From contig NZ_JACCFQ010000001.1 of the NCBI RefSeq assembly GCF_013410215.1, positions 1,736,001 to 1,800,000 of the forward strand: a stretch of DNA of 64,000 nucleotides, in the 5' to 3' direction. Within the stretch, counting starts at the first letter, position 1, and every line of letters begins with the position of its first letter. Both the position numbers and the translations under genes were made by a program. Below the pieces are notes generated by a model. It made no database searches. It was given only the letters and a program-made list of their open reading frames with translations, and was not told the origin of the DNA. This DNA comes from Nesterenkonia sandarakina. Lineage in GTDB: Bacteria > Actinomycetota > Actinomycetes > Actinomycetales > Micrococcaceae. This document shows, piece after piece, positions 36,136-61,663 of this stretch.

Positions 36136-36209
36136 CGTTGAGCGGCGGATTCTGCGAGCAGTTGATGGCCTTTACGGCCCAAACTGTTCGCAGAATCCGC
36201 CGCTCAACG
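36136..36209. repeat. 74-bp palindromic intergenic repeat, copy A
   Basis: The arms begin CGTTGAGCGGCGGATTCTG and end in the reverse complement; 27 of 28 outer positions pair, and an inner GGCC stem forms the tip. It is one of four copies of exactly 74 bp in the window. It is followed by TTTTT, so at this site it probably also terminates gltA transcription. It differs from the other copies by C for G at the eighth base, compensated in both arms. Confidence 0.95.
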
Positions 36210-36241
36210 TTTTTGGCGAGGCGATGTTTTTGGCGGGGCGG

Positions 36242-37306
36242 TCAGCGCCGGGAGAAGCCGATCACCACGGCGTCCTCGCTGACCGACTCCACCCGTTCCC
36301 AGCGGCCGGAGTCGCGGTGCCACTGGTAGGCCCCGGCGTGGACCGACTGCACCCCGTAGGTCTCCGCGGCGGCCACGGCCCACTGCGCGAGCAGCCATTC
36401 CGGCTCGCTGCGTTCGGTCGCGGCGTCCTCGGAGTCCTCCTCAGAGCTGGCCTCGGTGACCCCGGCGTCGTCCTCGACGTCGCTGACCGAGACCCGCACG
36501 ATGGCCGACTCGCCGGAGCCTTCCACGGCCACCGCCTCGGCTCCGAGCATGCCGGAGAGAGAGCCCTCCAGCTCCCCGCGCAGGCCTTCGGCGTCGGGGC
36601 CCGGGACATCGATCTGGCTGAGCTGGCAGGTCATCACCATCGGCTGCACCCCGGTGAGCGGACGCGCGAAGGCCCGCGCCAGCTCCTCGTGCTGCGGGTA
36701 GAACGTCGGATTCTGCGGCCGCCCCAGCGCTTCGGCGGATTCCTCCATCCCCAGCTCAGGTGACCATGCCAGCTCGCCCTCGCCCTCGCCCTCGCCGTCG
36801 CGACTCTCCACCAGGCGTGCGTAGAAGTCCTCGGCGGTTCTCGGGGTGGAGCTGGTGGCGCTCACGGCATCCCACTGTGGTCCGCCGTCGGCGAAGAGCA
36901 CCGGCGCCGGGGAGGGCTGCTCAGAGTCGCCTTCCTCAGCCTCAGCGTCCTCCTCCGCTGGCTGGGCCGTGGGGCCCGCACGGTTCTCCAGATCGGTCTC
37001 CTGGAGCGAGATCGCGATCGCGTCGGTGGCCGCCTGCACCGGCAGCTCCCGCTCTGCGGCGGCGGCGGCCAGATGCGCCGCAGAGTAGGTCTGCGCCGGG
37101 GTGAGCCGATGCTCCACCTCGCCCACCGTGACCGAGCAGCGTTCATCGAGGAGGTACTCGTTCTCCTCGATGAACTGCCAGGCCCCGTAGCCGGTGGCGC
37201 CGACGGCGGCGGCGACCACGGTGATCGCCGCAACGGCCTTGACTCGGCGACGGCGTCGGTAGACGGTACGGGTGACGGTGATGGGGCGATCAGCGCGCGG
37301 GCTCAT
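36242..37306 (-). CDS. Membrane-anchored protein of unknown function
   Basis: The 354-residue protein has a basic N-terminus (RRRRRVKAVAA), one membrane helix at about residues 23-45 and a large extracytoplasmic part beginning EENEYLLDERCSV. The chain holds two acidic low-complexity stretches, including a Gly-Glu alternation near residue 170 and a Glu/Ser-rich run near 295. Two cysteines (in ERCSV and MTCQLS) could form a disulfide. No enzymatic domain is recognised. GAGAGG precedes the start. It lies between the gltA-side repeat and dapD on the same strand as dapD. Confidence 0.75.
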   Translation of the reverse strand: MSPRADRPITVTRTVYRRRRRVKAVAAITVVAAAVGATGYGAWQFIEENEYLLDERCSVTVGEVEHRLTPAQTYSAAHLAAAAAERELPVQAATDAIAISLQETDLENRAGPTAQPAEEDAEAEEGDSEQPSPAPVLFADGGPQWDAVSATSSTPRTAEDFYARLVESRDGEGEGEGELAWSPELGMEESAEALGRPQNPTFYPQHEELARAFARPLTGVQPMVMTCQLSQIDVPGPDAEGLRGELEGSLSGMLGAEAVAVEGSGESAIVRVSVSDVEDDAGVTEASSEEDSEDAATERSEPEWLLAQWAVAAAETYGVQSVHAGAYQWHRDSGRWERVESVSEDAVVIGFSRR

Positions 37307-37377
37307 CGAGGACCTCTCGGTTCAGGGGCTGCGTGGGCGCGACGGCGTGCCCGTTCCACGGTGCCTGGACGGGCTGA

Positions 37378-38331
37378 TCAGTTGCGGTGCAGGGCGGCGT
37401 TGAGCTCGACCTTCTGGCCCTTGCGCGGGACGGCCTGAACGGCGCCGGTGAGCGAGTCGCGGCGGAAGAGCAGGTTCGGCACGCCGGAGAGCGCGGAAGC
37501 CTTCACGGTGTCCATCACGGTGCGGTCATCGGCGAGCACCGAGACCTTGGTGCCGGCGGTGACGTAGAGCCCGGCCTCGATCACGCAGTCGTCCCCGACC
37601 GAGATCCCCACACCGGAGTTCGCGCCGAGCAGCACACGCTCGCCCAGGGTGATCTTCTCCTTGCCGCCTCCGGAGAGGGTGCCCATGATGGATGCGCCGC
37701 CGCCGATGTCGGTGCCGTCGCCGACCACGACCCCGGCGGAGATGCGTCCCTCCACCATGGAGGTGCCCAGGGTGCCGGCGTTGAAGTTCACGAAGCCTTC
37801 GTGCATCACGGTGGTGCCCTCGGCCAGGTGTGCGCCCAGGCGCACCCGGTCCGCGTCGCCGATGCGCACACCCGAGGGGGTGACGTAGTCCACCAGGCGC
37901 GGGAACTTGTCGATCGAGTGCACGCTGACGTGCCCGCGGGCGCGCAGCTTCAGCCGGGTGGTCTCGAACCCGGCCACCGCGCAGGGGCCGAAGTTGGTCC
38001 AGACCACGTTGCTCAGGTGCCCGAAGATTCCGTCGAGGTTGATGCTGCGCGGGGTGACCAGACGGTGGGAGAGCAGGTGCAGACGCAGCCACACATCGGA
38101 GGTGGAACTCGCCTCGGAGTCCAGATCCGACTCCACGGAGACCACCTCGGTGGTGACGCCGCGCTCGGGATCCGTGCCGGTGGCGGCCTGCAGCGAGGCG
38201 ATCAGCTCGGCGTCGTCGTTCTCAGACAGGGGGGTCATCACCGGGCGCGGGAACCAGGTGTCCAGGACGGTGCCGTCGGTGGTCACCGTGGCGAGGCCAT
38301 GGCCGGATGCAGTTCGATTCTCAGTGCTCAT
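37378..38331 (-). CDS. dapD: Tetrahydrodipicolinate N-succinyltransferase
   Basis: The 317-residue left-handed beta-helix acyltransferase is of the actinobacterial DapD class. Hexapeptide-repeat stretches include [46 protein letters not shown] and [15 protein letters not shown]. It uses succinyl-CoA to make N-succinyl-2-amino-6-oxopimelate for diaminopimelate and lysine synthesis. It is divergent from dapE with an 87-bp gap. TAGGAT (38338-38343) ends six bases before the ATG, so the mRNA is predicted leaderless. Confidence 0.95.
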
Positions 38332-38418
38332 GGCACCATCCTACTTTTTCCTGTGCCGGAGCCCAGGGCTTCGGGAATGCGGGTCCCCGTTGCGGTGGGG
38401 TTCGCCTAGGCTGAACGG
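38332..38418. promoter_or_regulatory. Divergent dapD/dapE promoter region
   Basis: Two -10-like hexamers face outward: TAGGAT for dapD (38343 to 38338, minus strand) and TAGGCT for dapE (38407-38412, plus strand). Each ends exactly six bases before its start codon, implying two leaderless transcripts from 87 bp. No lysine riboswitch or operator is recognised. Confidence 0.6.
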
Positions 38419-39552
38419 ATGGATATCCGCGCTCTGCTCTCCGGCGACGTCGCCGCGCTCACCGAGGCGATCATCGCCTGCGAATCTGTCTCCGGCAATG
38501 AGAAGGCCCTGGCCGACGCCGTGGAGTCGGCGCTGCAGGACCTCGGCGGCCTGAGTCTGCACCGCGACGGGGACACGATCATCGCGCGCACCGAGACCGG
38601 TGCCGGGCAGCGGATCATCCTGGCCGGGCACCTGGACACCGTGCCGCTGCCGAGCACCCCGGGTTCCCGCGGCACGGTCCCGCCGAGCTGGGAGCAGATC
38701 GACGGCGAGCAGGTGCTCTATGGCCGCGGCGCCACCGACATGAAGGGCGGCGTGGCGGTGCAGCTGAAGCTGGCCGACGACGTCGCCGCTCACCTGGCCG
38801 CGGGCGGGTCCCTGGACCGCGACATCACCTGGGTCTTCTACGACCACGAGGAGGTCGAGGCCAGCAAGTCCGGACTCGGTCGGGTGATGCGCAGCGTGCC
38901 GGAGCTGCTGGACGGGGACTTCGCAGTCCTGCTGGAACCCACCCACGGGGTGGTCGAGGGTGGGTGCAACGGCACCTGCCGCTTCGAGGTCACGATCCCG
39001 GGGGTCGCCGCGCATTCCGGACGCGCCTGGATGGGGGAGAACGCGATCCACGGGGCCGCCGGGCTGCTGCAGGTGCTCAGCGACTACACGCCGCAGACCA
39101 TCACGGTGGAGGGCCTGGACTACCGCGAGGGGCTCAACGCGGTCCGCATCCGCGGCGGGGTGGCCGGAAACGTCATCCCGGATTCCACCGTGGTGGAGAT
39201 CAACTACCGCTTCGCCCCGGACAAGACGGAGGAGCAGGCCCACGCCCACGTCCGCGAGGTCCTCGCCGAAGCCGGGATCAGCGCAGGCCAGCAGAAGGTC
39301 ACGGACAGCTCCTCGGCCGCGCGCCCCGGTCTGGACCATCCGGCGGCCCAGGCGTTCATCGCCGCCGTGGGTGGGGAGCCGATGCCGAAATACGGCTGGA
39401 CCGATGTGGCACGCTTCTCCGCTCAGGGAGTCCCCGCCGTGAACTTCGGTCCCGGGGATCCGCTGCTGGCCCATTCCGATGATGAACACGTCACCGCGCA
39501 GGCGCTGCGGGACTGCCACACGGCGCTGCACCGCTGGCTGCTGGGAGGCTGA
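38419..39552 (+). CDS. dapE: Succinyl-diaminopimelate desuccinylase
   Basis: The 377-residue M20-family metallopeptidase removes succinate from N-succinyl-LL-diaminopimelate. The dinuclear zinc site is visible: His in AGHLDTVPLP, Asp in GRGATDMKGG, the Glu pair in YDHEEVEA, Glu in VLLEPTHG and the C-terminal His in DDEHVT. The dimerisation domain lies at about 180-290. It is divergent from dapD. The start follows TAGGCT by six bases with no Shine-Dalgarno, fitting leaderless translation. Confidence 0.95.
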   Translation: MDIRALLSGDVAALTEAIIACESVSGNEKALADAVESALQDLGGLSLHRDGDTIIARTETGAGQRIILAGHLDTVPLPSTPGSRGTVPPSWEQIDGEQVLYGRGATDMKGGVAVQLKLADDVAAHLAAGGSLDRDITWVFYDHEEVEASKSGLGRVMRSVPELLDGDFAVLLEPTHGVVEGGCNGTCRFEVTIPGVAAHSGRAWMGENAIHGAAGLLQVLSDYTPQTITVEGLDYREGLNAVRIRGGVAGNVIPDSTVVEINYRFAPDKTEEQAHAHVREVLAEAGISAGQQKVTDSSSAARPGLDHPAAQAFIAAVGGEPMPKYGWTDVARFSAQGVPAVNFGPGDPLLAHSDDEHVTAQALRDCHTALHRWLLGG

Positions 39553-39631
39553 ACCGCGGAGTCAGAGGTGCACGGCTGAGCGCCGGTCGCGTGCCGGGTG
39601 AGCGCCGGGGCGGATCCTCTAGGCTGATCTC

Positions 39632-40345
39632 ATGACCGAGAAGCAGACCTCCAGCACCCGTCCAGTCGCCCTGATCACCGGAGCCTCCCGCGGCATCGGC
39701 AAGGCCATCGCCGAAGAGCTCGGCCGCGACCACCACATCCTGGTCGGCGGGACCAACCCCGAGACCGTGGACGCCGTGGTGCAGGCCCTGCCCAGCGCGG
39801 AGCCGTTCCTGGTGGATCTGACCGATCTCGAGGCCATCGCCCCGGCGCTGGAGAAGGCCGCGCTCACCCGACTGGACGTGATGGTCCACTCAGCCGGGCT
39901 GGCCTGGATGAACCCGGTGGCGGAGAGCTCCCCGGCCCAGTTCCAAGAGATGTTCACAGTCAACGTCTTCGCCGTCGCCGAGCTGACCCGCGCCGGGCTG
40001 CCGCTGCTGCGCGAATCCTCCGGGCAGATGCTCAGCATCAACTCCGGCGCCGGATTCACCGCCGGACCCGGGAGCTCGATGTACTCCGGGACCAAGTTCG
40101 CGCTGCGCGCGCTCACCGACGCGCTGCGTGAGGAGGAGCGCGGCCGGATCAAGGTCACCTCGATCCACCCCGGCCGGGTGGACACAGATATGCAGGTTGC
40201 ACTTCAGCAGTCCATGGGCAACCAGAATTACGACGGCGGCATCTACATCTCCCCACAGGCCATCGCCGAGGCGGCGCGCACCGTGGTGGACATGGAGGAC
40301 GCCTCGATGGTGGAGAGCATCTCCATCCGCCCGGTCCAGAAGTGA
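39632..40345 (+). CDS. Short-chain dehydrogenase/reductase
   Basis: The 237-residue classical SDR has the cofactor motif TGASRGIG (residues 14-21), the NAG-equivalent HSAGLAW, the catalytic Ser in SINSGAG and Tyr/Lys in YSGTKFAL. It is an NAD(P)-dependent oxidoreductase; substrate is unknown. The chain is shorter than typical SDRs, with a compact C-terminus. TAGGCT (39620-39625) six bases before the ATG predicts leaderless translation. The GTG start of the GNAT gene overlaps its stop (GTGA). Confidence 0.92.
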   Translation: MTEKQTSSTRPVALITGASRGIGKAIAEELGRDHHILVGGTNPETVDAVVQALPSAEPFLVDLTDLEAIAPALEKAALTRLDVMVHSAGLAWMNPVAESSPAQFQEMFTVNVFAVAELTRAGLPLLRESSGQMLSINSGAGFTAGPGSSMYSGTKFALRALTDALREEERGRIKVTSIHPGRVDTDMQVALQQSMGNQNYDGGIYISPQAIAEAARTVVDMEDASMVESISIRPVQK

Positions 40346-40836
40346 CCGACATGCACGTCACCGAGCTGCCCGAAGAGCTCATCGACGCCGCCGCGGATCT
40401 CTGGCACCAGGCTGGGCTCACCCGCCCCTGGAACGACCCGCACGAGGACTGCCAGCGAGCCCTCACCGGGGAAGAGTCCACGGTGCTCGCCGCGCTCGAC
40501 GCCGCAGGTCGGCTCTCCGGCACGGTGATGGTGGGCCAGGACGGACACCGCGGCTGGATCTACTACCTCGCCGTGGACTCCCGGCAGCAGGGCCAGGGTC
40601 TCGGCAAGGTGCTGCTCGCCGGGGCCGAGGACTGGCTGCGTCAGCGCGGAGTGCCCAAGCTGATGCTCATGGTTCGGCAGGAGAACGCTGAAGTCCAGGA
40701 CTTCTACCGGAAATTGGGCTACACCGACCAGGACACGGTGGTGCTGGGCCGCTGGCTGGACACCGAGCTTCAGGCCGGGCTCGAGGCGGGGAGCGAGACC
40801 GAGGTCGGTGTGGGGGAGCCCCAGGCAAGGGGTTGA
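40342..40836 (+). CDS. GNAT-family acetyltransferase
   Basis: The 164-residue protein is a GNAT acyltransferase of the YpeA type, with DLWHQAGLTRPWNDP at the N-terminus and the acetyl-CoA-binding motif A RQQGQGLGKVLLAGAEDWL, followed by QDFYRKLGY. It would transfer an acetyl group from acetyl-CoA to an amine; the target is unknown. The GTG start overlaps the SDR stop by four bases (GTGA), linking the two. A 20-residue polar tail follows the fold. Confidence 0.88.
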   Translation: MTDMHVTELPEELIDAAADLWHQAGLTRPWNDPHEDCQRALTGEESTVLAALDAAGRLSGTVMVGQDGHRGWIYYLAVDSRQQGQGLGKVLLAGAEDWLRQRGVPKLMLMVRQENAEVQDFYRKLGYTDQDTVVLGRWLDTELQAGLEAGSETEVGVGEPQARG

Positions 40837-40844
40837 GTTCCGGG

Positions 40845-40900
40845 GGCTGAGTCTCCTGGACTGAGTCCACAAGGCTGAGTCTCCTGGGCTGCGTTCAGTG
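40845..40900. repeat. Two-copy 28-bp tandem repeat
   Basis: GGCTGAGTCTCCTGG occurs at 40845 and again at 40873 with a 28-bp period; the remainder of the unit has diverged. It lies between the convergent GNAT and LOG genes, and the second unit reaches six bases into the LOG 3' end. It appears to be a local duplication. Confidence 0.7.
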
Positions 40901-41500
40901 TCCCGCGGGAGGCGTCCAGGCACGCAGCTGCGAGATCAGATCCTGCGGGTCCGCGCTGATCACCAGTGCCTCGCGGCGCCAGGCGGACATGAAACCCTCG
41001 TCGACCATGTGATCCACCATCGCCAGCAGCGGATCCCAGAAGCCCTTGACGTTGTAGAGTCCCACCGGCTTGTTGTGCAGCCCCAGGTATTGCCAGGTCC
41101 AGACCTCGAAGAACTCCTCGAGTGTGCCCATGCCCCCAGGCAGCGCGATGAAGCCGTCGCCGAGCTCCGCCATCCGGGATTTTCGGGTGTGCATATCCTC
41201 AACGATCTCCAGCGAGGTCAGGCCGTGATGGCCCACCTCGCGGCCGATGAGCACCTCAGGGATGATCCCGTGCACCTCACCGCCAGCCTCTAGGGCGGCG
41301 TCGGCGATCTGCCCCATCAGCCCGACCTTGCCCCCGCCGTAGACCACGCTGATCTCCGCGCCCGCCAGCGCGGTGCCCAGGCGGCGGACCTCCTCGGTGT
41401 AGTCCAGGTCGGCCCCGGAGGCGGAGCCGGTGAATACCGTGAGAGCATGGAACCGTGGGGCAGGGGCGGATGCTGGGGTGTCCAGTGAAATAGAGGTCAC
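40895..41500 (-). CDS. LOG-family nucleotide 5'-monophosphate phosphoribohydrolase (TIGR00730-like)
   Basis: About 201 residues with a Rossmann-like fold and the LOG family motif PGGMGTLEEFFEVWTW, plus GGGKVGLMG near the N-terminus. Such proteins remove the base from cytokinin-type riboside monophosphates, or possibly other nucleotides. The GTG at 41500 is chosen because it leaves a shorter, family-like N-terminus; an in-frame ATG at 41533 adds 11 residues. TATAGA just upstream of the GTG is a candidate -10. It converges with the GNAT gene and lies head-to-head with the tRNA-Asn gene. Confidence 0.86.
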   Translation of the reverse strand: MTSISLDTPASAPAPRFHALTVFTGSASGADLDYTEEVRRLGTALAGAEISVVYGGGKVGLMGQIADAALEAGGEVHGIIPEVLIGREVGHHGLTSLEIVEDMHTRKSRMAELGDGFIALPGGMGTLEEFFEVWTWQYLGLHNKPVGLYNVKGFWDPLLAMVDHMVDEGFMSAWRREALVISADPQDLISQLRAWTPPAGH

Positions 41501-41522
41501 AGCTCTATAGTTCCACAGCGAT

Positions 41523-41552
41523 TTCACAGCCACCGGGATCCCCTGCTAGACT
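41523..41552 (+). promoter_or_regulatory. tRNA-Asn promoter
   Basis: TTCACA (41523-41528) and TAGACT (41547-41552) are 18 bases apart, and the tRNA begins 13 bases after the -10. This fits a housekeeping promoter with a short leader removed by RNase P. Confidence 0.6.
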
Positions 41553-41565
41553 TTTTCAGTCGCAA

Positions 41566-41637
41566 TCCTCCATAGCTCAACGGCAGAGCACTCGACTGTT
41601 AATCGAGCGGTTGTTGGTTCGAATCCAACTGGGGGAG
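41566..41637 (+). tRNA. tRNA-Asn (GTT)
   Basis: A full cloverleaf is present: acceptor TCCTCCA/TGGGGGA, D-arm GCTC/GAGC, anticodon stem CTCGA/TCGAG with loop CTGTTAA giving anticodon GTT, T-arm GTTGG/CCAAC with TTCGAAT. The discriminator is G73 and no CCA is encoded. A terminator follows at 41644. Confidence 0.97.
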
Positions 41638-41643
41638 CAGATC

Positions 41644-41674
41644 CGCCCTCGCCCTCACGGGCGGGGGCGTTTTT
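41644..41674 (+). terminator. Rho-independent terminator after tRNA-Asn
   Basis: An 11-bp GC-rich stem (41644-41654 with 41659-41669, one G-U) with a four-base loop is followed by TTTTT. It ends the tRNA-Asn transcript. Confidence 0.9.
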
Positions 41675-41743
41675 CATGCCATAGTGTTTTCCCTGCGAGG
41701 CCGTCCTGCGGCCCTGACCTGCTGAATCTGATTCGGAGACTAG

Positions 41744-42619
41744 ATGCGCGCCCCTGAGACGAAGACCCATGACATTGCCCGGCTGATCATCTCCTGCCCG
41801 GACCAGCCGGGGATCGTCGCGGCCGTCTCGGAGCTGATCGCGGAGGTCGGCGGCAACATCATCAGCCTGGACCAGTACTCCACCGGGGTGGAGGAGGGGC
41901 GCTTCTTCCAGCGCACCGTGTTCCACCTGCCCGGCCTGGCTGCGGCCAAGCCCGCGGTGGAGGAGGCGATCCGGACCAAGCTGGCGGACGGCTTCTCCAT
42001 GGAGTATTCGCTGACCGCGGCGGATCAGCCCAAGCGGGTGGCGATCTTCGCGTCCAAGACCGACCACTGCCTGCTGGATCTGCTGTGGCGGCACCGCCGG
42101 GGTGAGATCCCGATGGACATCGTCATGGTGATCTCCAACCACGCCGACCTGGCCGAGGATGTCCGGCCCTTCGGGATTCCTTATTTTCACGTGCCTGTGG
42201 TCAACGGTGACAAGGCGGCAGCCGAGGCCCGGCACCTGGAGCTGCTGCAGGGCAATGTCGACATGATCGTGCTCGCCCGGTACATGCAGATCATCTCCGA
42301 GGATTTCCTCGAGCAGGTGGGCGCTCCGGTGATCAACATCCACCACAGCTTCCTGCCCGCCTTCATCGGGGCCGGGCCCTACCAGAAGGCAGCTGACCGG
42401 GGGGTCAAGCTGATCGGCGCCACGGCCCACTACGTGACCAAGGACCTCGACGAGGGCCCGATCATCGAACAGGACGTCATCCGGGTCTCACACAGCGACG
42501 ACGTCGCCCAGCTCACCCGCTTCGGCGCCGACGTGGAGCGCGCCGTGCTCTCGCGCGCGGTGAAGTGGCACTGCGAAGACCGCGTGATCCGCAACGGCGG
42601 CACCACCATCGTCTTCTAG
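41744..42619 (+). CDS. purU: Formyltetrahydrofolate deformylase
   Basis: The 291-residue protein has an N-terminal ACT regulatory domain (ISCPDQPGIVAAVSELI) and a C-terminal formyltransferase-like hydrolase domain with INIHHSFLPAFIGAGPYQ, GATAHYVTKDLDEGPII and the catalytic Asn-His-Asp set. PurU splits 10-formyltetrahydrofolate into formate and tetrahydrofolate, balancing one-carbon units for purine synthesis and glycine metabolism. Length matches the family (about 280-295). It lies after the tRNA-Asn terminator and before a 74-bp palindromic repeat. Confidence 0.96.
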   Translation: MRAPETKTHDIARLIISCPDQPGIVAAVSELIAEVGGNIISLDQYSTGVEEGRFFQRTVFHLPGLAAAKPAVEEAIRTKLADGFSMEYSLTAADQPKRVAIFASKTDHCLLDLLWRHRRGEIPMDIVMVISNHADLAEDVRPFGIPYFHVPVVNGDKAAAEARHLELLQGNVDMIVLARYMQIISEDFLEQVGAPVINIHHSFLPAFIGAGPYQKAADRGVKLIGATAHYVTKDLDEGPIIEQDVIRVSHSDDVAQLTRFGADVERAVLSRAVKWHCEDRVIRNGGTTIVF

Positions 42620-42649
42620 AGCCTCCTTCCTCTCTATCCCCCCTCCCTC

Positions 42650-42723
42650 CGCTGAGGGGCGGATTCTGCGACTAGTTTGGGCTTTTCCGCCCATGAATCA
42701 GCCGTAGAATCCGCCCCTCAACG
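42650..42723. repeat. 74-bp palindromic intergenic repeat, copy B
   Basis: The arms start CGCTGAGGGGCGGATTCTG and end in CCGCCCCTCAACG, with an inner GGGC/GCCC stem at the tip. It sits between the convergent purU (+) and hsp20 (-) genes and shares length and outer arms with copies A, C and D. Confidence 0.95.
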
Positions 42724-42749
42724 AAAAGGGGAGTGGGGGTGGGGGAGGG

Positions 42750-43199: not shown

Positions 43200-43230
43200 A
43201 GCAATCAGCTCCTTGTACTCATTGCTCTAT

Positions 43231-50620: not shown

Positions 50621-50694
50621 TAGGGCGTCTGGGACTTGAACCCAGGACAAAAGGATTATGAGTCCTCTGCTCTAACCAACTGAGCTAACGCCCC
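50621..50694 (-). tRNA. tRNA with CAT anticodon (probably tRNA-Ile2; Met possible)
   Basis: On the minus strand a full cloverleaf is present: acceptor GGGGCGT/ACGCCCT, D-arm AGCTCAGTTGGTTAGAGC, anticodon loop CTCATAA (CAT), T-arm CTGGG/CCCAG with TTCAAGT, discriminator A73, no CCA. The D-arm TTAGCTCAGTTGGTTAGAGCA resembles bacterial Ile2 tRNAs, whose C34 becomes lysidine, more than elongator Met tRNAs. Identity between the two needs TilS-determinant comparison. Confidence 0.9.
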
Positions 50695-54730: not shown

Positions 54731-54805
54731 GAGTCCTCCTCGGGTAGTTCTCGGCAGCGGGCGAGAATATTCTGCCATTGTCGCGGCCGCTCAGGAACTG
54801 CGGCG

Positions 54806-55372
54806 TCACCGGTCGTCCAGTGGCAGCAATACCGAGGGTTCCAGATCACCGGTGAGCAGCAGTGGGTTGATGTACTCCCCGTAGAGCCGCACACCCCAAT
54901 GCAGGCAGGGTGTGGCGCAATGGCTCGGACTGACCGCCAGCGTTGCCACCGGATCCCCGGTGCTGACCCGATCGCCGACCTGAAGGCTGCTCTCCACAGG
55001 TTCGAAGGAGCTGAGGTAGCCGTCGCCGTGGCGGATGGAGAGCACGGGCCGGTCCACGACGACGCCGACGAAGCTGACCTCACCCTCGGCAGGTGCGCGG
55101 ATGCTCACCGAGGTCTCCAGCGGACCCAAATCTGCTCCTCGGTGACCTGCACCCCAGGGGGAGGGCGGTCTGGTGAAAGGCCGCAGCTCACCTGCGGACA
55201 CCGGAGGGACCCAAAGCGCCCGTGTCGCTGATGGCGCGTCGAGCTCCGTAGGGTCGATTCCCAGCAGCAGCGATCCGGCTGAGGCGGGAGTCAACACCCC
55301 CAGAACAAGCAGCAGCGTGAGACCCAGCGTTGCTGCCCTGAGCCGTCCGAATCTGCACCCGCTCGCGTCCAT
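54806..55372 (-). CDS. M23 (LytM-like) peptidase domain secreted protein, altered active site
   Basis: The 188-residue protein has a signal peptide (about residues 1-33, ending ASAG) and an M23 fold. The zinc ligands His77 and Asp81 (HRGADLG) and His158 (CLHWG) remain. The two catalytic histidines of active LytM enzymes are replaced: the first His of HxH is Cys156 and the Y-x-H-L histidine is Glu124 (SSFEPV). It may bind rather than cut peptidoglycan. Location upstream of rpsB, divergent, is the usual actinobacterial position. The ATG at 55372 is the only start that gives a proper signal peptide. Confidence 0.85.
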   Translation of the reverse strand: MDASGCRFGRLRAATLGLTLLLVLGVLTPASAGSLLLGIDPTELDAPSATRALWVPPVSAGELRPFTRPPSPWGAGHRGADLGPLETSVSIRAPAEGEVSFVGVVVDRPVLSIRHGDGYLSSFEPVESSLQVGDRVSTGDPVATLAVSPSHCATPCLHWGVRLYGEYINPLLLTGDLEPSVLLPLDDR

Positions 55373-55755
55373 GCATCCAGCCTCGACCACCGGCGAACCC
55401 CGATCCCCGCGAACGCGCTGAAGTGTGCAGCGTGAGGGCCCCCGGCGGATCCCTGCGACGGTTGGGGAAAACGCCGTCGAGCGGCTAAGCTGAACCCCAG
55501 CAGTTGACACTGGCGCGTCTCGGCGTGCCTGGATCAGCTGACTACGCGCAGGAGCTGCCCGAGTGATCGGGGCGTTTCTCATCGGTCCACATCGCTGTCC
55601 CTGACCTTGGAACAGCCATGCGGCGAGAACGCGAGGCCTCTCCCTCTTCTGCCAGGAGCCCGAGAGAACCGGGCCATTGTCCAACCGAGAATCCCAGCCG
55701 GAGCTGCATCAGGCATGTCCTGCATGTTCTAAGCCCGGCATCGAAAGGAAATACC
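55373..55755 (+). promoter_or_regulatory. rpsB: 383-bp rpsB upstream region
   Basis: This gap between the divergent M23-like gene and rpsB holds a candidate promoter TTGGGG-N18-TAAGCT (55462-55491) and a downstream TTGACA (55504-55509) without a clear -10. The resulting leader of about 250 bases is long and GC-rich, as expected for a ribosomal protein S2 leader under autogenous control, but no known motif was confirmed. No small gene is convincing here. Confidence 0.4.
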
Positions 55756-56652
55756 ATGCCTGTCGTCACCATGCGCCAGCTGCTCGACTCCGGTGTCCAC
55801 TTCGGTCACCAGACTCGCCGCTGGAACCCGAAGATGAAGCGCTTCATCTTCACCGAGCGCAACGGCATCTACATCGTTGACCTCCAGCAGTCCCTGACCT
55901 ACATCGACACTGCCTACGAGTTCGTCAAGCAGACCGTCGCCCACGGCGGCTCCGTCCTCTTCGTCGGCACCAAGAAGCAGGGCCAGGAAGCCATCGCCGA
56001 GCAGGCCACCCGCGTCGGCCAGCCCTACGTCAACCATCGTTGGCTCGGCGGCATGCTGACCAACTTCCAGACGGTCTCCAAGCGCGTGCAGCGCATGAAG
56101 GAGCTCGAGGAGATCGACTTCGACGACGTCGCAGGCTCCGGTCACACCAAGAAGGAACTGCTGCTGATGCGCCGCGAGCTCACCAAGCTGCAGTCGAACC
56201 TCGGTGGTATCCGCAACCTGACCAAGACCCCCTCTGCGGTCTGGATCGTCGACACCAACAAGGAGCACCTGGCGGTCGATGAGGCCAAGAAGCTGGGCAT
56301 CCCCGTGATCGCCATCCTCGACACCAACTGCGACCCCGATGACGTCCAGTACCCGATCCCGGGCAACGACGACGCCATCCGGTCCGTGGACCTGCTGACC
56401 CGCGTGATCGCCGACGCCGTGGCCGATGGCCTCATGGCTCGCGAGAACAAGCGCGGCGGCGGCTCCGGCGCGGCTGCCGAGCCGATGGCCGAGTGGGAGC
56501 GCGAGCTGCTCGAGCAGCACGCCACCGAGAAGTCCGCCGAGGCTGAGAAGTCGGAGCAGGCTGCAGAGCCCGCCAAGGCTGAGCAGTCCACCGAGGCTCC
56601 CGCCGCTGAGTCCACCGAGTCCACCGACGCTTCGGCTGAAGAAGCCAAGTAA
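55756..56652 (+). CDS. rpsB: 30S ribosomal protein S2
   Basis: The 298-residue S2 protein begins [27 protein letters not shown] and contains [11 protein letters not shown] and the closing [15 protein letters not shown]. It has the usual length plus a 60-residue Ala/Glu/Ser-rich acidic tail typical of actinobacteria. S2 binds the head of the 30S subunit. AAAGGAA (55744-55750) precedes the ATG. It heads the conserved rpsB-tsf-pyrH-frr-cdsA series. Confidence 0.98.
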
Positions 56653-56671
56653 AGAGAGGAACTGCTTTTCT

Positions 56672-57511
56672 ATGGCGAACTACACCGCTGCAGACATCAA
56701 GGCCCTGCGTGAGCGCACCGGCGCCGGCATGATGGACGTGAAGAAGGCTCTGGATGAGACCGACGGCGATACCGAGAAGGCCCTCGAGGCCATCCGGATC
56801 CGCGGACTCAAGGGTGCTGCCAAGCGCGAAGGCCGCTCCGCCGTGGAGGGCCTGGTCACCGCCAAGGTCGTCAACCGCACCAAGGGCTTCCTGATCGAGA
56901 TCAACGCCGAGACCGACTTCGTGGCCAAGTCCGCGAAGTTCGTCGCGCTGGCCGACAAGGTCCTCGAGACCGCCGTCGCCCACGACGTGGACACCGTGGA
57001 GGCGCTCCTGGAGGCCGACGTCGAGGGCAAGAAGCTCGTCGACTTCGTCACCGAAGAGGGCGCGATCCTCGGCGAGAAGGTCGTCGTGCGTCGTCTTGCC
57101 ACGGTCGAGGGCTCCTTCGTGGACGCCTACCTGCACAAGACCTCCAAGGACCTTCCGGCTCAGGTCGGCGTGCTCTTCGCCGTCGACGCCGACTCGGACC
57201 AGGCCAAGGAAGCTGCCCACGACATCGCGGTGCACGCCGCCGCGCTGTCCCCGCAGTTCCTGACCCGCGACGAGGTCCCCGCGGAGACCGTGGCCGATGA
57301 GCGCCGCATCGCCGAGGAGACCGCACGGGCCGAGAACAAGCCCGAGCAGGCGATGACCAAGATCATCGAGGGACGCACCAACGCGTACTTCAAGGACAAC
57401 GTGCTGGTCGACCAGCCGTTCGCCAAGGACCCGAAGAAGACCGTCACCCAGGTCCTCGAGTCCGCCGGCACGTCCGCGAAGGGTCTGGCTCGCTTCCGCG
57501 TCGGAGCCTGA
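56672..57511 (+). CDS. tsf: Elongation factor Ts
   Basis: The 279-residue EF-Ts begins with MANYTAADIKALRERTGAG, with the signature LRERTGAGMMDVKKAL followed by TD(G)D and the core EINAETDFVAK. It is the GDP/GTP exchange factor for EF-Tu. GAGAGGA lies upstream of ATG 56672, 20 bases after rpsB, so the two are cotranscribed. A strong terminator follows at 57596. Confidence 0.98.
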   Translation: MANYTAADIKALRERTGAGMMDVKKALDETDGDTEKALEAIRIRGLKGAAKREGRSAVEGLVTAKVVNRTKGFLIEINAETDFVAKSAKFVALADKVLETAVAHDVDTVEALLEADVEGKKLVDFVTEEGAILGEKVVVRRLATVEGSFVDAYLHKTSKDLPAQVGVLFAVDADSDQAKEAAHDIAVHAAALSPQFLTRDEVPAETVADERRIAEETARAENKPEQAMTKIIEGRTNAYFKDNVLVDQPFAKDPKKTVTQVLESAGTSAKGLARFRVGA

Positions 57512-57595
57512 TGCTTGATGCCGCTGAGACTCGCGGCAGCTGAACTGCAGAGCCGCTGACCATTAGACTGGTCGCAGCTCAACAGTTCAGACGTC

Positions 57596-57636
57596 AAGGG
57601 GGTGGCCACTTCACACGAGGTGGTCACCCCCTTTTC
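57596..57636 (+). terminator. Rho-independent terminator after tsf
   Basis: AAGGGGGTGGCCAC... pairs with GTGGTCACCCCCTT over about 17 bp (57596-57612 with 57617-57633, two G-U pairs), followed by TTTT. It separates rpsB-tsf from pyrH, so pyrH needs its own promoter. Confidence 0.92.
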
Positions 57637-57731
57637 TGTGCCCACCGCGGCCTGCTTCGGTCGCAGCGGCCGCCCGTGAGCGGCTCAACGCGACCACCTC
57701 ACCCCGCCCCACGAACCCCTGGAGGACACCC

Positions 57732-58454
57732 ATGACCACAGAGACCCCGACCCACCGCCGCCGTGTGCTCCTGAAGCTCTCCGGAGAGGTCTTCGGCGGA
57801 GGTGCAGTGGGAGTGGATCCGGCCACGGTGCGCGGGATCGCTGAGCAGATCGCCGCCGTCAAGGGTCAGGTGGAAGTCTCCGTCGTCGTCGGCGGCGGCA
57901 ACTTCTTCCGCGGCGCCGAGCTCTCCCGCGCCGGCATGGACCGGGCCCGCGCCGACTACATCGGCATGCTGGGCACCGTGATGAACGCCCTGGCGCTGCA
58001 GGACTTCCTGGAGCAGGCCGGGCAGCCCACCCGCGTGCAGACCGCCATCACCATGGGTCAGGTCGCTGAGTCCTACATCCCGCTGCGCGCCGTGCGCCAC
58101 ATGGAGAAGGACCGGGTCGTCGTCTTCGGCGCCGGCGCAGGCATGCCCTACTTCTCCACCGACACCGTCTGTGCCCAGCGCGCGCTGGAGACCCGTTCAG
58201 ACATGGTGCTGATGGCCAAGTCCGGTGTGGACGGGATCTACACGGCGGACCCGAAGACCACCCCCGACGCGCAGAAGCTGGATCACCTCACCTACACCGA
58301 CGCGCTGCGCAAGAACATCCGCGTGATGGACCAGACCGCGATGACCATGTGCAATGACAACGACCTGAACATGCGGGTCTTCGGCATGGAGGGCGAGGGC
58401 AACGTCACCCGCGCCCTGCTCGGCGAGGAGATCGGCACGCTGGTCACCCCCTGA
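57732..58454 (+). CDS. pyrH: UMP kinase
   Basis: The 240-residue amino-acid-kinase-fold enzyme phosphorylates UMP to UDP. It shows the P-loop-like start [23 protein letters not shown], the conserved [17 protein letters not shown] and [11 protein letters not shown] with the UMP-binding region. PyrH is hexameric and allosterically controlled by UTP and GTP. GGAGG lies before the ATG. It sits between tsf and frr in the standard order. Confidence 0.97.
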
Positions 58455-58532
58455 CCTGGTGGCCCGGACTAGACTGGACCTCTATTGAGTCCGCAACGTC
58501 TTCCCACAACGTCATCCCATAAGGAGACCCCC

Positions 58533-59090
58533 GTGATTGATGAGACCCTGGCAGATGCCAAGGAGCAGTTCGAGCGAGCCATCGAGGCCACCTCGGTCGA
58601 CTTCAGCACCGTGCGCACCGGCCGCGCCAACCCGGCGCTGTACTCCCGGGTGCTGGTGGACTACTACGGCGCCGCCACCCCGCTGCAGCAGCTGGCAGCC
58701 TTCTCCACCCCGGACGCCAAGACCATCCTGATCACCCCCTATGACATCTCAGCGATGCGCGACATCGAGCGGGCGCTGTCTGACTCTGAGATCGGGGCCA
58801 ACCCCTCCAACGACGGCAAGCAGATCCGGATCACGATCCCGGACCTCACCGAGGAGCGCCGCAAGGAGTACGTCAAGCTGATCAAGTCCAAGGGCGAGGA
58901 CCACAAGGTCTCGGTGCGCAACACCCGGCGCAAGTCCAAGGAGATCATCGAGAAGGCCATCAAGGACGGCGAGGTCGGCAAGGACGATGGCGAGCGCGGC
59001 ACCAAGGAGCTCGAAAGCCTCACCAAGTCCTATGTGGAGAAGATCGATGAGATGAGCAAGCGCAAGGAAGCTGAGCTGCTCGAGGTCTGA
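58533..59090 (+). CDS. frr: Ribosome recycling factor
   Basis: The 185-residue RRF (family length about 185) shows ERAIEATSVDFSTVRTGRANPALYSRVLVDYYG, AATPLQQLA and KQIRITIPDLTEERRKEYVK. With EF-G it splits post-termination ribosomes. The GTG at 58533 is preceded by AAGGAG (58521-58526). TAGACT near 58470 is a possible -10. The TGA overlaps the cdsA start (TGATG). Confidence 0.97.
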   Translation: MIDETLADAKEQFERAIEATSVDFSTVRTGRANPALYSRVLVDYYGAATPLQQLAAFSTPDAKTILITPYDISAMRDIERALSDSEIGANPSNDGKQIRITIPDLTEERRKEYVKLIKSKGEDHKVSVRNTRRKSKEIIEKAIKDGEVGKDDGERGTKELESLTKSYVEKIDEMSKRKEAELLEV

Positions 59091-59944
59091 TGTCAGGCAA
59101 AGCTGGGAGGGACCTGCCCGCAGCCATCATCACCGGTGTCGTCCTGCTGGTCCCGGCACTCCTGGGGATCTTCTTCTTCGAGCTGCTGCTGATCTTCGTC
59201 TGGACCATCCTGCTCTCCATGGGGGTCTGGGAGGTGGCCCGCGCCCTCGAGACCAGGGTGGCACCCAACGGACACCATCTGCGGCTGCCGAAGATTCCGC
59301 TGTTCCTCGGCGCCGTGGCGATGCCCACCGCCGCCTACTTCGGCGGGGTGGAGGCGCTGACGCTGGCGCTGATGGCCACCGGGCTGGCGATCATCGTCGC
59401 CGCGGCGCTCTGGAAGGTGCGCGACCCCGGTCGTTCCATCCTGGCCTCGGTGTTCGTGGCCAGCTGGGTGCCGTTCATGATGTCCTTCGCGGTGCTGCTG
59501 CTCAACCTTGACCAGGGTGACTGGCGGCTCGTCGTCGTCGTGCTGCTGGTGGTCTCCAACGACACCTTCGGCTACATCTTCGGGGTCTTCTTCGGGAAGC
59601 ACCCGATGGCGCCGAAGATCAGCCCGAAGAAGTCCTGGGAGGGCTTCGCGGGCTCGCTGCTCGGGGCCTCCGGCGTCGGGGTGCTGGCCTCCTGGCTGAT
59701 CTTCGATGAGCCGCTCTACGTCGGGGCGGTGCTCGCGGTGGCCGTGGTGGTCGCCTCCACCGCCGGGGACTTCTCCGAGTCGATGGTCAAACGCGAACTC
59801 GGCATCAAGGACATGTCGCGGCTGCTTCCAGGTCACGGCGGAGTGATGGATCGCCTGGACTCGCTGGTCTTCGCAATGCCCACCGCGTTCTTCGTGGTCG
59901 TGGCGTTCAGCGGGGATACCGGTGGTGTTCCACTAGGCTTATGA
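59090..59944 (+). CDS. cdsA: Phosphatidate cytidylyltransferase
   Basis: The 284-residue integral membrane protein makes CDP-diacylglycerol from phosphatidate and CTP. The Cds signature is present near the C-terminus: STAGDFSESMVKRELGIKDMSRLLPGHGGVMDRLDSL, including the catalytic acids. About eight membrane helices precede. It supplies the CDP-lipid used by phosphatidyltransferases such as the one at 45825. It is coupled to frr by one shared base. Confidence 0.96.
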   Translation: MSGKAGRDLPAAIITGVVLLVPALLGIFFFELLLIFVWTILLSMGVWEVARALETRVAPNGHHLRLPKIPLFLGAVAMPTAAYFGGVEALTLALMATGLAIIVAAALWKVRDPGRSILASVFVASWVPFMMSFAVLLLNLDQGDWRLVVVVLLVVSNDTFGYIFGVFFGKHPMAPKISPKKSWEGFAGSLLGASGVGVLASWLIFDEPLYVGAVLAVAVVVASTAGDFSESMVKRELGIKDMSRLLPGHGGVMDRLDSLVFAMPTAFFVVVAFSGDTGGVPLGL

Positions 59945-59946
59945 GC

Positions 59947-60507
59947 ATGGCGCAGAACGAGACGGCACTTTTCACGCTCCTCAACGAGGGCGAGCAGGGT
60001 TATCACCGCGACGAGGTGGATGAATTCATGGCACGCGCCCGCGTGGCCTATGACTCCGGCGAGGGCATGGCGCTGGCCGAGATCCGTGACGTGAGCTTCT
60101 CGATGACCGGCGGCGGCTATGACCCCGCAGAGGTCGACGGCGCGCTGGACCGGCTCGAGGACGCGTTCGCCGGCGCCGAGCGGGACAAGTACATCGATGC
60201 CCATGGCGAGGACGCCTGGTATGAGATGCTCGCCGAACGCGCCGAGCCGCTGCGCGGACGGCTCTCCCGCCCGGACGGCAAACGCTTCCGAGAACCGGCG
60301 CACTCCTCCTCCAACGGCTACCGCAAGGAACAGGTCGACGAACTCTGCCGCCAGCTCGAGCAGTACCTCGACGGGGAGAACCCGATGAGCGTGGACGAGG
60401 TCCGCACCATGACCTTCTCCGGGGCCCACGGCCACAACGGCTACGACGAGGCCCAGGTGGACGCATTCCTGGACAAGATGACCGAGATCATGGCCTCCGT
60501 CGGCTGA
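59947..60507 (+). CDS. DivIVA-domain protein
   Basis: About 186 residues with three copies of the short DivIVA/SepIVA-like pattern: F-x7-G-Y-x3-E-V-D-E-F-M near residue 20, GYDPAEVDGALDRLEDAF, and GYRKEQVDELCRQLEQYL and GYDEAQVDAFLDKMTEIM toward the C-terminus. Such domains mediate coiled-coil polar or septal scaffolds. TAGGCT (59934-59939) ends seven bases before ATG 59947, favouring this start over ATG 59941, which would directly abut the hexamer. It probably has its own promoter despite overlapping the cdsA 3' region. Confidence 0.85.
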   Translation: MAQNETALFTLLNEGEQGYHRDEVDEFMARARVAYDSGEGMALAEIRDVSFSMTGGGYDPAEVDGALDRLEDAFAGAERDKYIDAHGEDAWYEMLAERAEPLRGRLSRPDGKRFREPAHSSSNGYRKEQVDELCRQLEQYLDGENPMSVDEVRTMTFSGAHGHNGYDEAQVDAFLDKMTEIMASVG

Positions 60508-60530
60508 CCCAGCCTTCCCCTTCCCCTTCT

Positions 60531-60604
60531 CGTTGAGGGGCGGAATCTGCGGGTATCTCATCGGGTTTTTGGCCCTAGATGCTCGCAGATTCCGCCCCTC
60601 AACG
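60531..60604. repeat. 74-bp palindromic intergenic repeat, copy C
   Basis: CGTTGAGGGGCGGAATCTGCG and its complement close both ends, with TTTTTGG near the tip. It begins 24 bases after the DivIVA-domain gene stop and flanks the degenerate gene at 60762 on its left. Length is exactly 74 bp, as in the other copies. Confidence 0.95.
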
Positions 60605-60761
60605 TGTGTGGGCACGGTTTCGCCGCTTCATCCCCAGCCTCGGGTCCCGCCGGGACTCTCCACAGCCAAGCCCTGGGCCCCCCGGCGAGGCGGCGAACCG
60701 GTGTGCACTGACTCCCGTGGAGTCACCGAGCAGATCCCAGGACGGCCGTCGGCGACCCGCC

Positions 60762-61595
60762 ATGTTCGTGCCCTCAGAGGGACGACGACGGGCGCGGCTC
60801 CATGCCGAGGGCATGACGCGGCGCGATCTCGAGCATTCCCGGGCGAACGATCTCCTGCGCCGACTGGCGCACGGCGTGTATTCCGGCACGGGGCTGCCGC
60901 AGGAGCCGGAGTCTGATCCGATCAGCGCACTGCTGCAGGGGCTCACCGAGGCCACCCCACGGGTGGTCAGCTTCGAGACGGCAGCCCGGTTCTGGGGACT
61001 GGTTCCCGGGGAGGTCGCCCCGCCGTTCCACCTGAGCAGTCCGGCAGGCGGGCCGCCGGTGCAGCGGCCCGAACTGGTGGTGGGGCACCGGATCACGGTC
61101 CCGGATCGGTTCGTCGTCGACCTTCACGGAATCCGGGTCACCAGCCCGGCCTGGACCTGGTTGGACCTCTCGCTGCGCGCAGCCGCGGGCGCAGCGGCGG
61201 GCCGCGCCGTCGAACGTGCGGTGCTCCTGGGAGATCAGGCGGTGCGTCCTCCACGCCGCGAATTCGGCGAGACCGGTGGGCCGCTGGCGAGCATCGACGA
61301 GCTGCGTGAGGCTGTGCGGGTGCGTGGTCGCACCAAGGGCATTCGGCACGTCCGTGAGGCTGTGGCCCTGGTCCGGGTCGGCGTCGACTCCCCGCAGGAG
61401 TCCCGGTTGCGGTACTTCATGCACCTCGCCGCCCTGCCCGAGCCGCTGGTGAACCCGGTGATTCGGGGTCCCAGTGGATGTCCCTCATTCGAGCCCGACC
61501 TGGCCATCCCGGAGTTCCGCCTCGCGATCCAGCGCATCCAGCGCGCGCTGGTGCAGCGGGGTTGGCGCCCGGACAGCCTCACCACACACCGCTGA
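60762..61595 (+). pseudogene. Degenerate AbiEi-like/DUF559 protein, nuclease core deleted
   Basis: About 277 residues. The N-terminal part (MTRRDLEHSRANDLLRRLAHGVYS) looks like the winged-helix start of AbiEi-type antitoxin-like proteins. The C-terminal part (SPQESRLRYFMHLAALPEPLVNPVI, EPDLAIPEFRLAI) resembles DUF559/Vsr-like proteins. Those normally continue with EYDG-x-HH and a W-x2-D segment; here the chain jumps directly to RIQRALVQRGWRP, then ends, so the nuclease motif is missing. The TGA stop lies within the left end of repeat copy D. The gene is bracketed by repeats C and D. No Shine-Dalgarno is seen, so the start is uncertain. Confidence 0.55.
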
Positions 61596-61663
61596 GGGGC
61601 GGATTCTGCGAGTATCTGGCGCCGATCTCGGCCTCAACTACTCGTAGAATCCGCCCCTCAACG
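61590..61663. repeat. 74-bp palindromic intergenic repeat, copy D
   Basis: The arms start CGCTGAGGGGCGGATTCTGCG and end ATCCGCCCCTCAACG; 25 outer positions pair with two mismatches. Its first bases supply the TGA that ends the degenerate gene upstream. It lies between that gene and the convergent actP gene. Confidence 0.95.

What the first reader, a model, noticed from the sequence alone, without database searches (positions are those of the whole stretch)
36136..61663. Family of exactly 74-bp palindromic intergenic repeats (four copies)
Copies at 36136-36209, 42650-42723, 60531-60604 and 61590-61663 have the same length, the outer arms CGYTGAGSGGCGGAWTCTG and a nested GGCC-type tip. Arm changes are compensated (C/G swap in copy A), so the fold appears selected or inherited as a unit. 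All lie next to gene 3' ends, and the one after gltA is followed by a T-run. They may be a non-autonomous, mobile REP/MITE-like element or a domesticated terminator; no transposase is visible.
Basis: seen in the sequence. Interest (0 to 1): 0.72.

Follow-up and report, generated by a model that had tools for sequence, protein, structure and literature searches.

The report
Fixed-length palindromes at gene ends
A bacterium (Nesterenkonia) and its relatives carry dozens of DNA palindromes of about 74 letters just behind the ends of ordinary genes; different lineages spell them differently but keep nearly the same length, which suggests that something in the cell reads them.

Summary
The four 74-bp palindromes exist, and the host (Nesterenkonia) holds 18 copies, 17 of exactly 74 bp. 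Eight related genomes hold 15-27 each. Over these nine genomes 161 of 188 copies are 74 bp, 26 are 73 or 75.

They sit a median of 20 nt behind stop codons. They are old: 24 orthologous clusters, seven filled in 9 of 9 genomes. The four vacancies inspected (two sites, two genomes each) keep arm remnants, so look like deletions. No target duplication and no Y1 transposase were found in the nine genomes. So "mobile now" is not supported here, although relatives show near-identical neighbour copies with unrelated flanks.

"Compensated arms" clearly holds for column 8 only. With columns 8 and 19 aside, 10 of 330 deviations are compensated, and re-pairing halves between copies hardly changes arm pairing. 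Yet arms stay 87-89% identical between orthologues while adjoining flanks fall to 53-59%. Arm sequence seems selected, not just the fold.

Other Nesterenkonia carry 72-75 bp families with different arms, mostly at other genes, plus an 84-bp class.

Best reading: a once-dispersing repeat, now a fixed gene-end (probably terminator) element whose half-sites bind an unidentified lineage-specific factor.

The parts
36136..36209 (.). Copy A, 74-bp palindrome between convergent gltA (citrate synthase, stop at 36116) and a gene on the - strand ending at 36242
   Evidence: fold -63.4 kcal/mol, z -15; Pfam Citrate_synt; orthologous site filled in all 9 main genomes
42650..42723 (.). Copy B, 74-bp palindrome between convergent ACT/formyltransferase gene (purU-like, stop 42619) and an Hsp20 gene (ends 42750)
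60531..60604 (.). Copy C, 74-bp palindrome 23 nt behind a gene with a DivIVA domain (stop 60507), tandem context
   Evidence: G019 and G021 keep only arm remnants at this site
61590..61663 (.). Copy D, 74-bp palindrome between convergent genes; its left arm (TGA, 61593-61595) is the stop codon of the upstream ORF; 24 nt from a sodium:solute symporter gene ending at 61688
36136..36156 (+). Example of the conserved outer half-site (columns 1-21, clade consensus CGTTGAGGGGCGGATTCTCCG); its inverted partner is 36189-36209
   Evidence: half-site composition over 322 halves of 161 copies

Best explanation
A dispersed family of fixed-length, two-half palindromes that act as gene 3'-end elements, most probably bidirectional transcription terminators or mRNA 3'-end stabilisers. 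Each 37-bp half carries a 21-bp sequence that is conserved on its own account, so an unidentified sequence-specific factor (a DNA-binding protein that needs the two half-sites at a set spacing, or less likely an RNA-binding one) is inferred to read it. The family arose by element-precise dispersal behind stop codons before this Nesterenkonia clade radiated and is now vertically inherited, kept by selection and lost by deletion. Sister lineages had their own expansions with other arm 'dialects'. Shown: copy number, fixed length, position behind stop codons, orthologous positions, arm conservation with little compensation, lineage-specific arms, arm remnants at vacant sites. Inferred: terminator activity, the reading factor, the dispersal mechanism.
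For: 18 copies in the host and 15-27 in eight relatives; 161 of 188 are 74 bp, 22 are 73, 4 are 75, one 66. 177 of 188 copies have at least one gene end facing them; 268 gene ends, quartiles 13/20/36 nt. 24 orthologous clusters with 3 or more main-clade copies, seven filled in 9 of 9 genomes. Gapped identity of orthologue pairs (438 pairs from 18 one-copy clusters): arms 0.87 and 0.89, adjoining 21-nt flanks 0.59 and 0.53, against 0.45 and 0.44 for flanks of unrelated sites. Without column 8, arm pairing is 0.9075 real against 0.9089 with halves re-paired between copies of one genome; of 330 deviating column-copies (columns 8 and 19 left out) 10 are compensated, 71 wobble, 249 mismatched. At gltA, G014, G003, G002, G020, G008, G001, G004 and G013 have unrelated 34-45 nt hairpins 11-55 nt behind the stop. 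G028 has 28 copies with other arms, 27 of 74 bp and one 72. Column 19 has drifted as a set: G in 23 of 34 halves of G000, 0 of 50 in G016, 0 of 44 in G027, 0 of 42 in G011.
Against: No protein is identified, and no RNA 3' end was mapped. A U-tract follows in only 9 of 268 transcript-facing ends. With column 8 included, arm pairing is slightly above re-paired halves (0.8991 against 0.8939, 10 of 500 reach it), and oriented real copies fold slightly better than re-paired ones (-47.1 against -45.5 kcal/mol, 0 of 100 reach it), so some selection on pairing remains. Arms of unrelated sites are nearly as alike as those of orthologues (0.837-0.877), which fits selection but also homogenisation. By a crude gene caller 24 of 188 main-clade copies lie between divergent genes, and 11 of 188 have no facing gene. 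Adjacent genes are ordinary, with no common theme recognised.
Confidence: 0.5

Rival explanations
1. A non-autonomous mobile element (MITE- or REP-like) that still spreads with help from an unseen transposase; the place behind stop codons is merely where insertion does no harm.
For: Neighbour copies within 5 kb reach 98.8% identity with unrelated flanks: near pairs inner identity 0.70 (n=47) against 0.56 for far pairs (n=1881), 25-bp flanks 0.35 and 0.34. Copies cluster: 4 adjacent gaps under 3 kb in G000 against 0.3 expected for random places. Families with different arms sit mostly at different genes: G028 0 of 25, G003 1 of 23 copies with a facing gene share a gene with the main clade.
Against: In the window's clade sites are shared by up to 9 of 9 genomes; the four vacancies inspected keep arm remnants; no shared 4-9 bp on both sides in 188 copies; Y1 transposase in 0 of 9 main genomes and 1 of 20 genomes searched; no exact match of the element pattern in viral contigs and no BLAST match of copy A in plasmids or phages. 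The window's own neighbour pair C/D is not alike inside (0.53).
Confidence: 0.2
2. Ordinary Rho-independent terminators, in which only the RNA hairpin matters, alike by descent from one expanded repeat.
For: Position behind stop codons, strong folds, short unrelated hairpins at the same gltA place in eight relatives, a small folding advantage of real over re-paired copies.
Against: A hairpin alone would let the sequence drift with compensation; here sequence is kept and compensation is 10 of 330. U-tracts are rare (9 of 268). Length is nearly fixed although a stem need not be.
Confidence: 0.15
3. Repeats without function whose arms are kept alike by gene conversion between copies.
For: Some neighbour pairs are near identical; arm identity is the same for orthologues (0.876) and paralogues (0.877); column 8 is mixed between genomes at many sites.
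Against: Inner parts of paralogues in one genome are no more alike than those of different sites in different genomes (0.547 and 0.549, better strand taken for both). For 28 neighbour pairs with homologous pairs elsewhere, the pair within a genome is the more alike in only 6. At some sites the column-8 state is kept: C-G in 6 of 7 at gltA, G-C in 9 of 9 at copy D's site.
Confidence: 0.1

Closest known systems
REP elements, GTAG- and CGTC-tagged (Di Nocera 2013, PMC3733652; parts of the abstract and passages seen)
   Same: Dispersed palindromes, some families species-specific, mostly between tandem or convergent genes and often within 20 bp of gene 3' ends; CGTC REPs also lack a dedicated transposase and are mostly inverted dimers
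   Different: CGTC units have stems of 8-9 bp, loops of 4-5 and unpaired tag and tail; here one unit is a 74-bp palindrome of two 37-bp halves with paired ends, no tag, and a nearly fixed total length
REPs counted by RepRanger (PMC12306157; passages seen)
   Same: Lists putative REPs in an Arthrobacter and other Actinomycetota
   Different: Its default palindromes are at most 32 nt; Nesterenkonia is not mentioned
TRIT, repeated terminator motif of Mycobacterium (Gardner 2011, RNIE; recalled, paper not held; the name seen only in a passage of PMC3526491)
   Same: Actinobacterial, repeated terminator-like hairpins at gene 3' ends (recalled)
   Different: As recalled TRIT is shorter and mycobacterial; lineage-specific arms, fixed length and independence of halves are not known to me for it; not tested here
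DNA uptake sequence dialects of Neisseriaceae (PMC3630211; search listing and start of abstract only; details recalled)
   Same: Lineage 'dialects' of a dispersed short sequence that tracks a reading protein; inverted pairs double as terminators (recalled)
   Different: Uptake sequences are far more numerous and also occur singly (recalled); here about 18 copies, nearly all as complete pairs
MITEs (general features recalled)
   Same: Short, inverted terminal arms, no coding capacity, many copies
   Different: No target duplication, no partner transposon seen, sites stable across the clade

Membership tests
REP (CGTC type) | Short stem-loop (8-9 bp stem) with an unpaired tag at one end | tested here: not met
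   Single outer stem of up to 28 bp, both ends paired
REP (GTAG type) | Associated RAYT / Y1 transposase in the genome | tested here: not met
   PF01797 in 0 of 9 main genomes; 1 of 20 genomes searched, G006
MITE | Target site duplication | tested here: not met
   0 of 188 copies share 4-9 bp on both sides; 4 of 188 share 3 bp against 2.95 with shuffled flanks, 15 share 2 bp against 18.5
MITE | Clean empty orthologous sites | tested here: inconclusive
   Two sites, two genomes each inspected: all four keep arm-like remnants of roughly 10-20 nt, by my reading of the alignments. Other possible vacancies listed were not inspected
MITE | Autonomous transposon with the same ends | tested here: inconclusive
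   In the own genome all arm hits with at most 1 mismatch belong to the 18 copies except one at 1185539; transposases other than Y1 were not searched
Intrinsic terminator | Stable hairpin just behind the stop codon | tested here: met
   268 gene ends, quartiles 13/20/36 nt; folds of the 18 own copies z -1.5 to -15
Intrinsic terminator | U-tract after the hairpin | tested here: not met
   4 or more T in the next 8 nt in 9 of 268; G-rich instead. Actinobacterial terminators without U-tract are recalled from the literature
Intrinsic terminator | RNA 3' end at the site | not testable with these tools
   No RNA data
Known Rfam family | Match at gathering score | tested here: not met
   Only two tRNAs in window 30000-64000

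The most novel reading that the evidence does not exclude
The element is a pair of inverted sites for a lineage-coevolving DNA-binding (perhaps transposase-derived) protein that acts at gene ends, and its length is set by the DNA helix: sizes cluster at 73-75 and 84 bp, about one turn apart, while arm sequences change from lineage to lineage. This would be a class of gene-end control site conserved in length and layout rather than in sequence.
Probability: 0.22. Interest if true: 0.75.

Novelty: new variant of a known kind. Interest (0 to 1): 0.52.

Why it matters
Dispersed palindromes at bacterial gene ends are common, but why they are kept is an open question: fold, sequence or mobility. This family lets the three be told apart. 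Positions are stable, sequence is kept with little compensation, and length is kept across lineages whose arms differ. That makes a direct experiment possible: find what binds the arms, and ask whether spacing matters. If a reading factor exists, gene ends in these actinobacteria would have a sequence-specific layer with lineage dialects.

Tried and rejected
Covariation as proof of a selected fold: not borne out. In the own genome both-sides-changed cells are 12 against 10.1 shuffled; over 161 copies column 8 stands out (z 4.8), columns 12, 14 and 19 reach only z 2.2, and without column 8 nothing is left in the arms. The first, unoriented half-swap test showed inner pairs below expectation; this came from mixing the two orientations of the asymmetric tip, so it was repeated with copies oriented by their inner part, where a small folding advantage of real copies appeared.

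Ungapped flank identities (0.48 and 0.42) understate flank similarity because of indels; gapped values are 0.59 and 0.53, and the report uses these.

General concerted evolution of neighbour copies: near pairs over all genomes are more alike, but in the main clade the within-genome pair is the more alike in only 6 of 28 cases (the cross-genome mean there includes orthologues), so conversion is not general there.

A genus-wide pattern of outer ends at 74 bp was too noisy: many listed hits look coding. Helical-turn spacing also fits the 63-bp family of G039, but not the 59-60 bp family of G036, so it is kept only as a possibility.

Literature: searches gave no account of these repeats in their listings. 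Of the 13 papers ten were listed and none opened; those were not opened; passages were read of PMC12306157, PMC3733652 and PMC3526491 only.

The gltA site in G005, G006, G007 and G023 was found because I looked there; these four are left out of the unbiased site-sharing count (4 of 74 remaining copies, at two genes). No chance level was measured for that count.
Full report
WHAT IS THERE. The four copies at 36136-36209, 42650-42723, 60531-60604 and 61590-61663 are real and exactly 74 bp long. The window lies in a 3.02-Mb genome, G000:C1:1736001-1800000. A scan of named genomes for the element returns 41 stretches, all titled Nesterenkonia. A covariance model built from 17 copies finds 18 copies in the own genome, each seen on both strands, 17 of 74 bp and one of 73; two weak further places were found. 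In a search of 58 genomes, own one included, 17 have a match at E 0.01 or better. Eight other members of the genus carry many copies: G011 25, G012 23, G016 27, G018 22, G019 15, G021 17, G022 16, G027 25, counted from the place lists. G012, G027, G011, G018, G019 and G021 can be named by their contig lengths: N. aurantiaca DSM 27373, N. sp. Act20, uncultured Nesterenkonia 2-592A-3Z, N. sp. E16_10, N. sp. LB17 and N. sandarakina CG 35. Over these nine 'main' genomes 188 copies are tabulated: 161 of 74 bp, 22 of 73, 4 of 75 and one of 66. Two of the 73-bp ones (G012:C1:560873, G018:C22:220450) have quite different arms.

ANATOMY. Columns 1-21 of each half (consensus CGTTGAGGGGCGGATTCTCCG) are strongly conserved over 322 halves, apart from columns 8 and 19; columns 22-35 follow a looser consensus. 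The tip is asymmetric, so each copy has an orientation. The flanks are C-rich before and G-rich after the element along the transcript: 55% C in the 12 nt before, 57% G in the 8 nt after, over 268 transcript-facing ends. Single copies fold into stems of up to 28 bp with a small tip; of the 18 own copies the weakest reaches z -1.5 and the strongest z -15.

WHERE IT SITS. 177 of 188 main copies have at least one gene end facing them, 91 have two; the 268 distances from stop codon to element have quartiles of 13, 20 and 36 nt. A crude gene caller put 81 between convergent, 80 between tandem and 24 between divergent genes, with 3 overlapping. In copy D, and in one more own copy (2089105), the arm's own TGA is the stop codon of the upstream ORF by these ORF calls (distance -6). 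The adjacent genes are ordinary: citrate synthase, formyltransferase, Hsp20, DivIVA-domain, symporter, acetyl-CoA synthetase-like, thiolase, prolyl oligopeptidase, S30AE ribosome-associated protein and others; several have no Pfam match.

AGE AND MOBILITY. Flank comparison groups the 212 copies of 14 genomes into 48 clusters, 21 of them single copies. 24 clusters hold three or more main-clade copies; seven are filled in 9 of 9 genomes and five in 8; a few clusters merge two neighbouring sites. I inspected two sites that are vacant in some genomes: the site of G000:189601 in G021 and G022 and window copy C's site in G019 and G021. All four keep pieces that I read as arm remnants, so the element was probably lost by deletion; no clean empty site was seen, but other possible vacancies were not inspected. 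No copy of 188 shares 4-9 bp on both sides. The Y1 transposase family PF01797 is in 0 of the 9 main genomes and in 1 of 20 genomes searched; other transposase families were not searched. Copy A has no match in plasmids or phages and the element pattern none in viral contigs. Against this, element-precise copying has happened in relatives: pairs within 5 kb reach 98.8% identity over 84 bp with unrelated flanks (G003 2113873 and 2114753), and pairs above 91% occur in G003, G028, G008, G018 and G027; near pairs average 0.70 inner identity (n=47), far pairs 0.56 (n=1881), 0 of 5000 random samples reach the near mean, while flank identity is the same (0.35 and 0.34). Copies are also clustered: 4 adjacent gaps under 3 kb in G000 against 0.3 expected for random places (the null does not restrict places to gene ends). 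In the main clade, however, the within-genome neighbour pair is the more alike in only 6 of 28 comparisons, and the window's pair C/D is at background (0.53).

SEQUENCE OR FOLD. If only the hairpin mattered, arm changes would be compensated. In the own genome, cells changed on both sides are 12 against 10.1 in shuffles. Over 161 copies, re-pairing left and right halves between copies of the same genome gives arm pairing of 0.8939 against 0.8991 real (10 of 500 shuffles reach it); with column 8 set aside the difference is gone: 0.9075 real, 0.9089 re-paired, 306 of 400 shuffles at least as high. Of 330 column-copies with a deviation (columns 8 and 19 left out), 10 are compensated, 71 wobble and 249 mismatched. 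In the other direction, oriented real copies fold slightly better than re-paired ones, -47.1 against -45.5 kcal/mol, sd 0.36, 0 of 100, and column 8 pairs more often than re-paired halves, 0.733 against 0.591. The column-8 state is kept at some sites (C-G in 6 of 7 at gltA, G-C in 9 of 9 at copy D's site) and mixed at many others, so few independent changes may lie behind its covariation. Arms of orthologues are 0.87 and 0.89 identical (gapped, 438 pairs from 18 one-copy clusters) while the adjoining 21 nt are at 0.59 and 0.53, not far above unrelated sites (0.45 and 0.44); the inner part is 0.632 (305 pairs of 74-bp copies, ungapped). Arm sequence is therefore kept while the surroundings turn over. 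Gene conversion is a poor explanation, since inner parts of paralogues in one genome (0.547) are no more alike than those of different sites in different genomes (0.549); but arms of unrelated sites are nearly as alike as those of orthologues, so homogenisation of arms alone is not excluded.

DIALECTS AND LENGTH. I looked at the 3' end of gltA in 23 Nesterenkonia genomes. Eight main genomes have the element (its scored ends are trimmed in two). G005, G006 and G023 have hairpins with other arms and scored spans of 71, 74 and 69 bp, G007 one with a scored span of 60 that I extend by eye to 74. Eight others (G014, G003, G002, G020, G008, G001, G004, G013) have unrelated short hairpins; G009, G010 and G015 show nothing clear (GltA tree). 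G026, found without looking at gltA, also has a 73-bp version there. G028 carries 28 copies with arms mostly CATCGAGTCCCCGATC, 27 of 74 bp and one of 72. G003, G008, G023 and G009 carry 72-75 bp versions with arms such as CRTCGAGTGGGGG or CATCGAGCGGGGG. G006 has its own 74-bp family and G005 a small one. Outer ends CRTYGAG are shared by seven of the eight groups compared (not G006); columns 8-21 differ; an inner motif YAKYT starts at column 24 in 187 of 322 main, 18 of 54 G028, 10 of 20 84-bp and 3 of 10 G006 halves, but is rare in G003 (5 of 32, one column off), G008, G023 and G026. A second size class of 84 bp appears in G003 (6), G009 (3) and G024 (3), with none listed between 76 and 83 bp (ten sequences seen). 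That is about one helical turn more than 73.5 bp. Different-arm families mostly occupy other genes: of 84 such copies examined (not all that were found), 78 have a facing gene; leaving out the four gltA copies that I found by looking there, 4 of 74 share a gene with the main clade, at two genes; G028 0 of 25. One cluster joins G003, G009 and, by one flank, G028, so some sharing exists among those. Within the main clade column 19 has shifted as a set: G in 23 of 34 halves of G000, 15 of 32 of G021, 14 of 38 of G018 and 7 of 40 of G012, but 2 of 24 in G019, 1 of 18 in G022 and 0 of 50, 0 of 44 and 0 of 42 in G016, G027 and G011.

INTERPRETATION. Shown: an old, position-stable family behind stop codons, with nearly fixed length and arm sequence kept with little compensation. 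Inferred: a factor reads each half-site, and the element ends or protects transcripts from both sides. The dispersal step is unexplained; it was element-precise and partly local in relatives, and left no duplication. I therefore rate a fixed gene-end element with a reading factor highest (0.5), an active mobile element 0.2, a plain terminator 0.15 and conversion without function 0.1.

NOVELTY. Repeats at gene 3' ends without a dedicated transposase are known (CGTC REPs, PMC3733652, parts of the abstract and passages; TRIT, recalled). The tested defining features of REPs are not met; of MITEs the target duplication is not met and the other two tests are inconclusive. The combination of fixed length, lineage dialects and independent halves is a new variant of a known kind as far as my searches show (listings of an open-licence library, few papers opened).

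Noticed in passing
G003:C1:2098109, 1015855, 1017007, 2113873, 2114753, 1245758 (L395-L398); L351, L353, L357, L376: A second size class of exactly 84 bp with the same outer ends (mostly CATCGAGTGG), about one helical turn longer than the 73-75 bp class
   Followed up: partly
L321, L323, L328, L333, L337, L341, L345 (G039) and L322, L324, L338, L342, L346 (G036): Two genomes of other families of the order have their own dispersed hairpins at the gltA 3' end and elsewhere: about 63 bp in G039, 59-60 bp in G036 (some in clusters)
   Followed up: partly
L397 (G003), L280 and L281 (G028), L367 and L370 (G008): Near-identical neighbour copies about 0.9-2.4 kb apart with unrelated flanks: recent element-precise copying by an unknown route
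   Followed up: partly
window 61593-61595 and G000:C1:2089105: The TGA in the element's arm is the stop codon of the upstream ORF, by ORF calls
   Followed up: no
G012:C1:560873 and G018:C22:220450: Two orthologous 73-bp palindromes with a different arm dialect (CATCGAGTGGGCGAT) inside main-clade genomes
   Followed up: no
window 4840-4885, 19855-19903, 26228-26280: Other strong inverted repeats (21-23 bp arms, 95-100% complementary) with unrelated sequence, perhaps ordinary terminators
   Followed up: no
G009:C60:36039-36112: A 74-bp near-perfect palindrome with CGTTGAG ends but unrelated arms
   Followed up: no
window 41566-41637 (+) and 50621-50694 (-): Two tRNA genes (Rfam)
   Followed up: no
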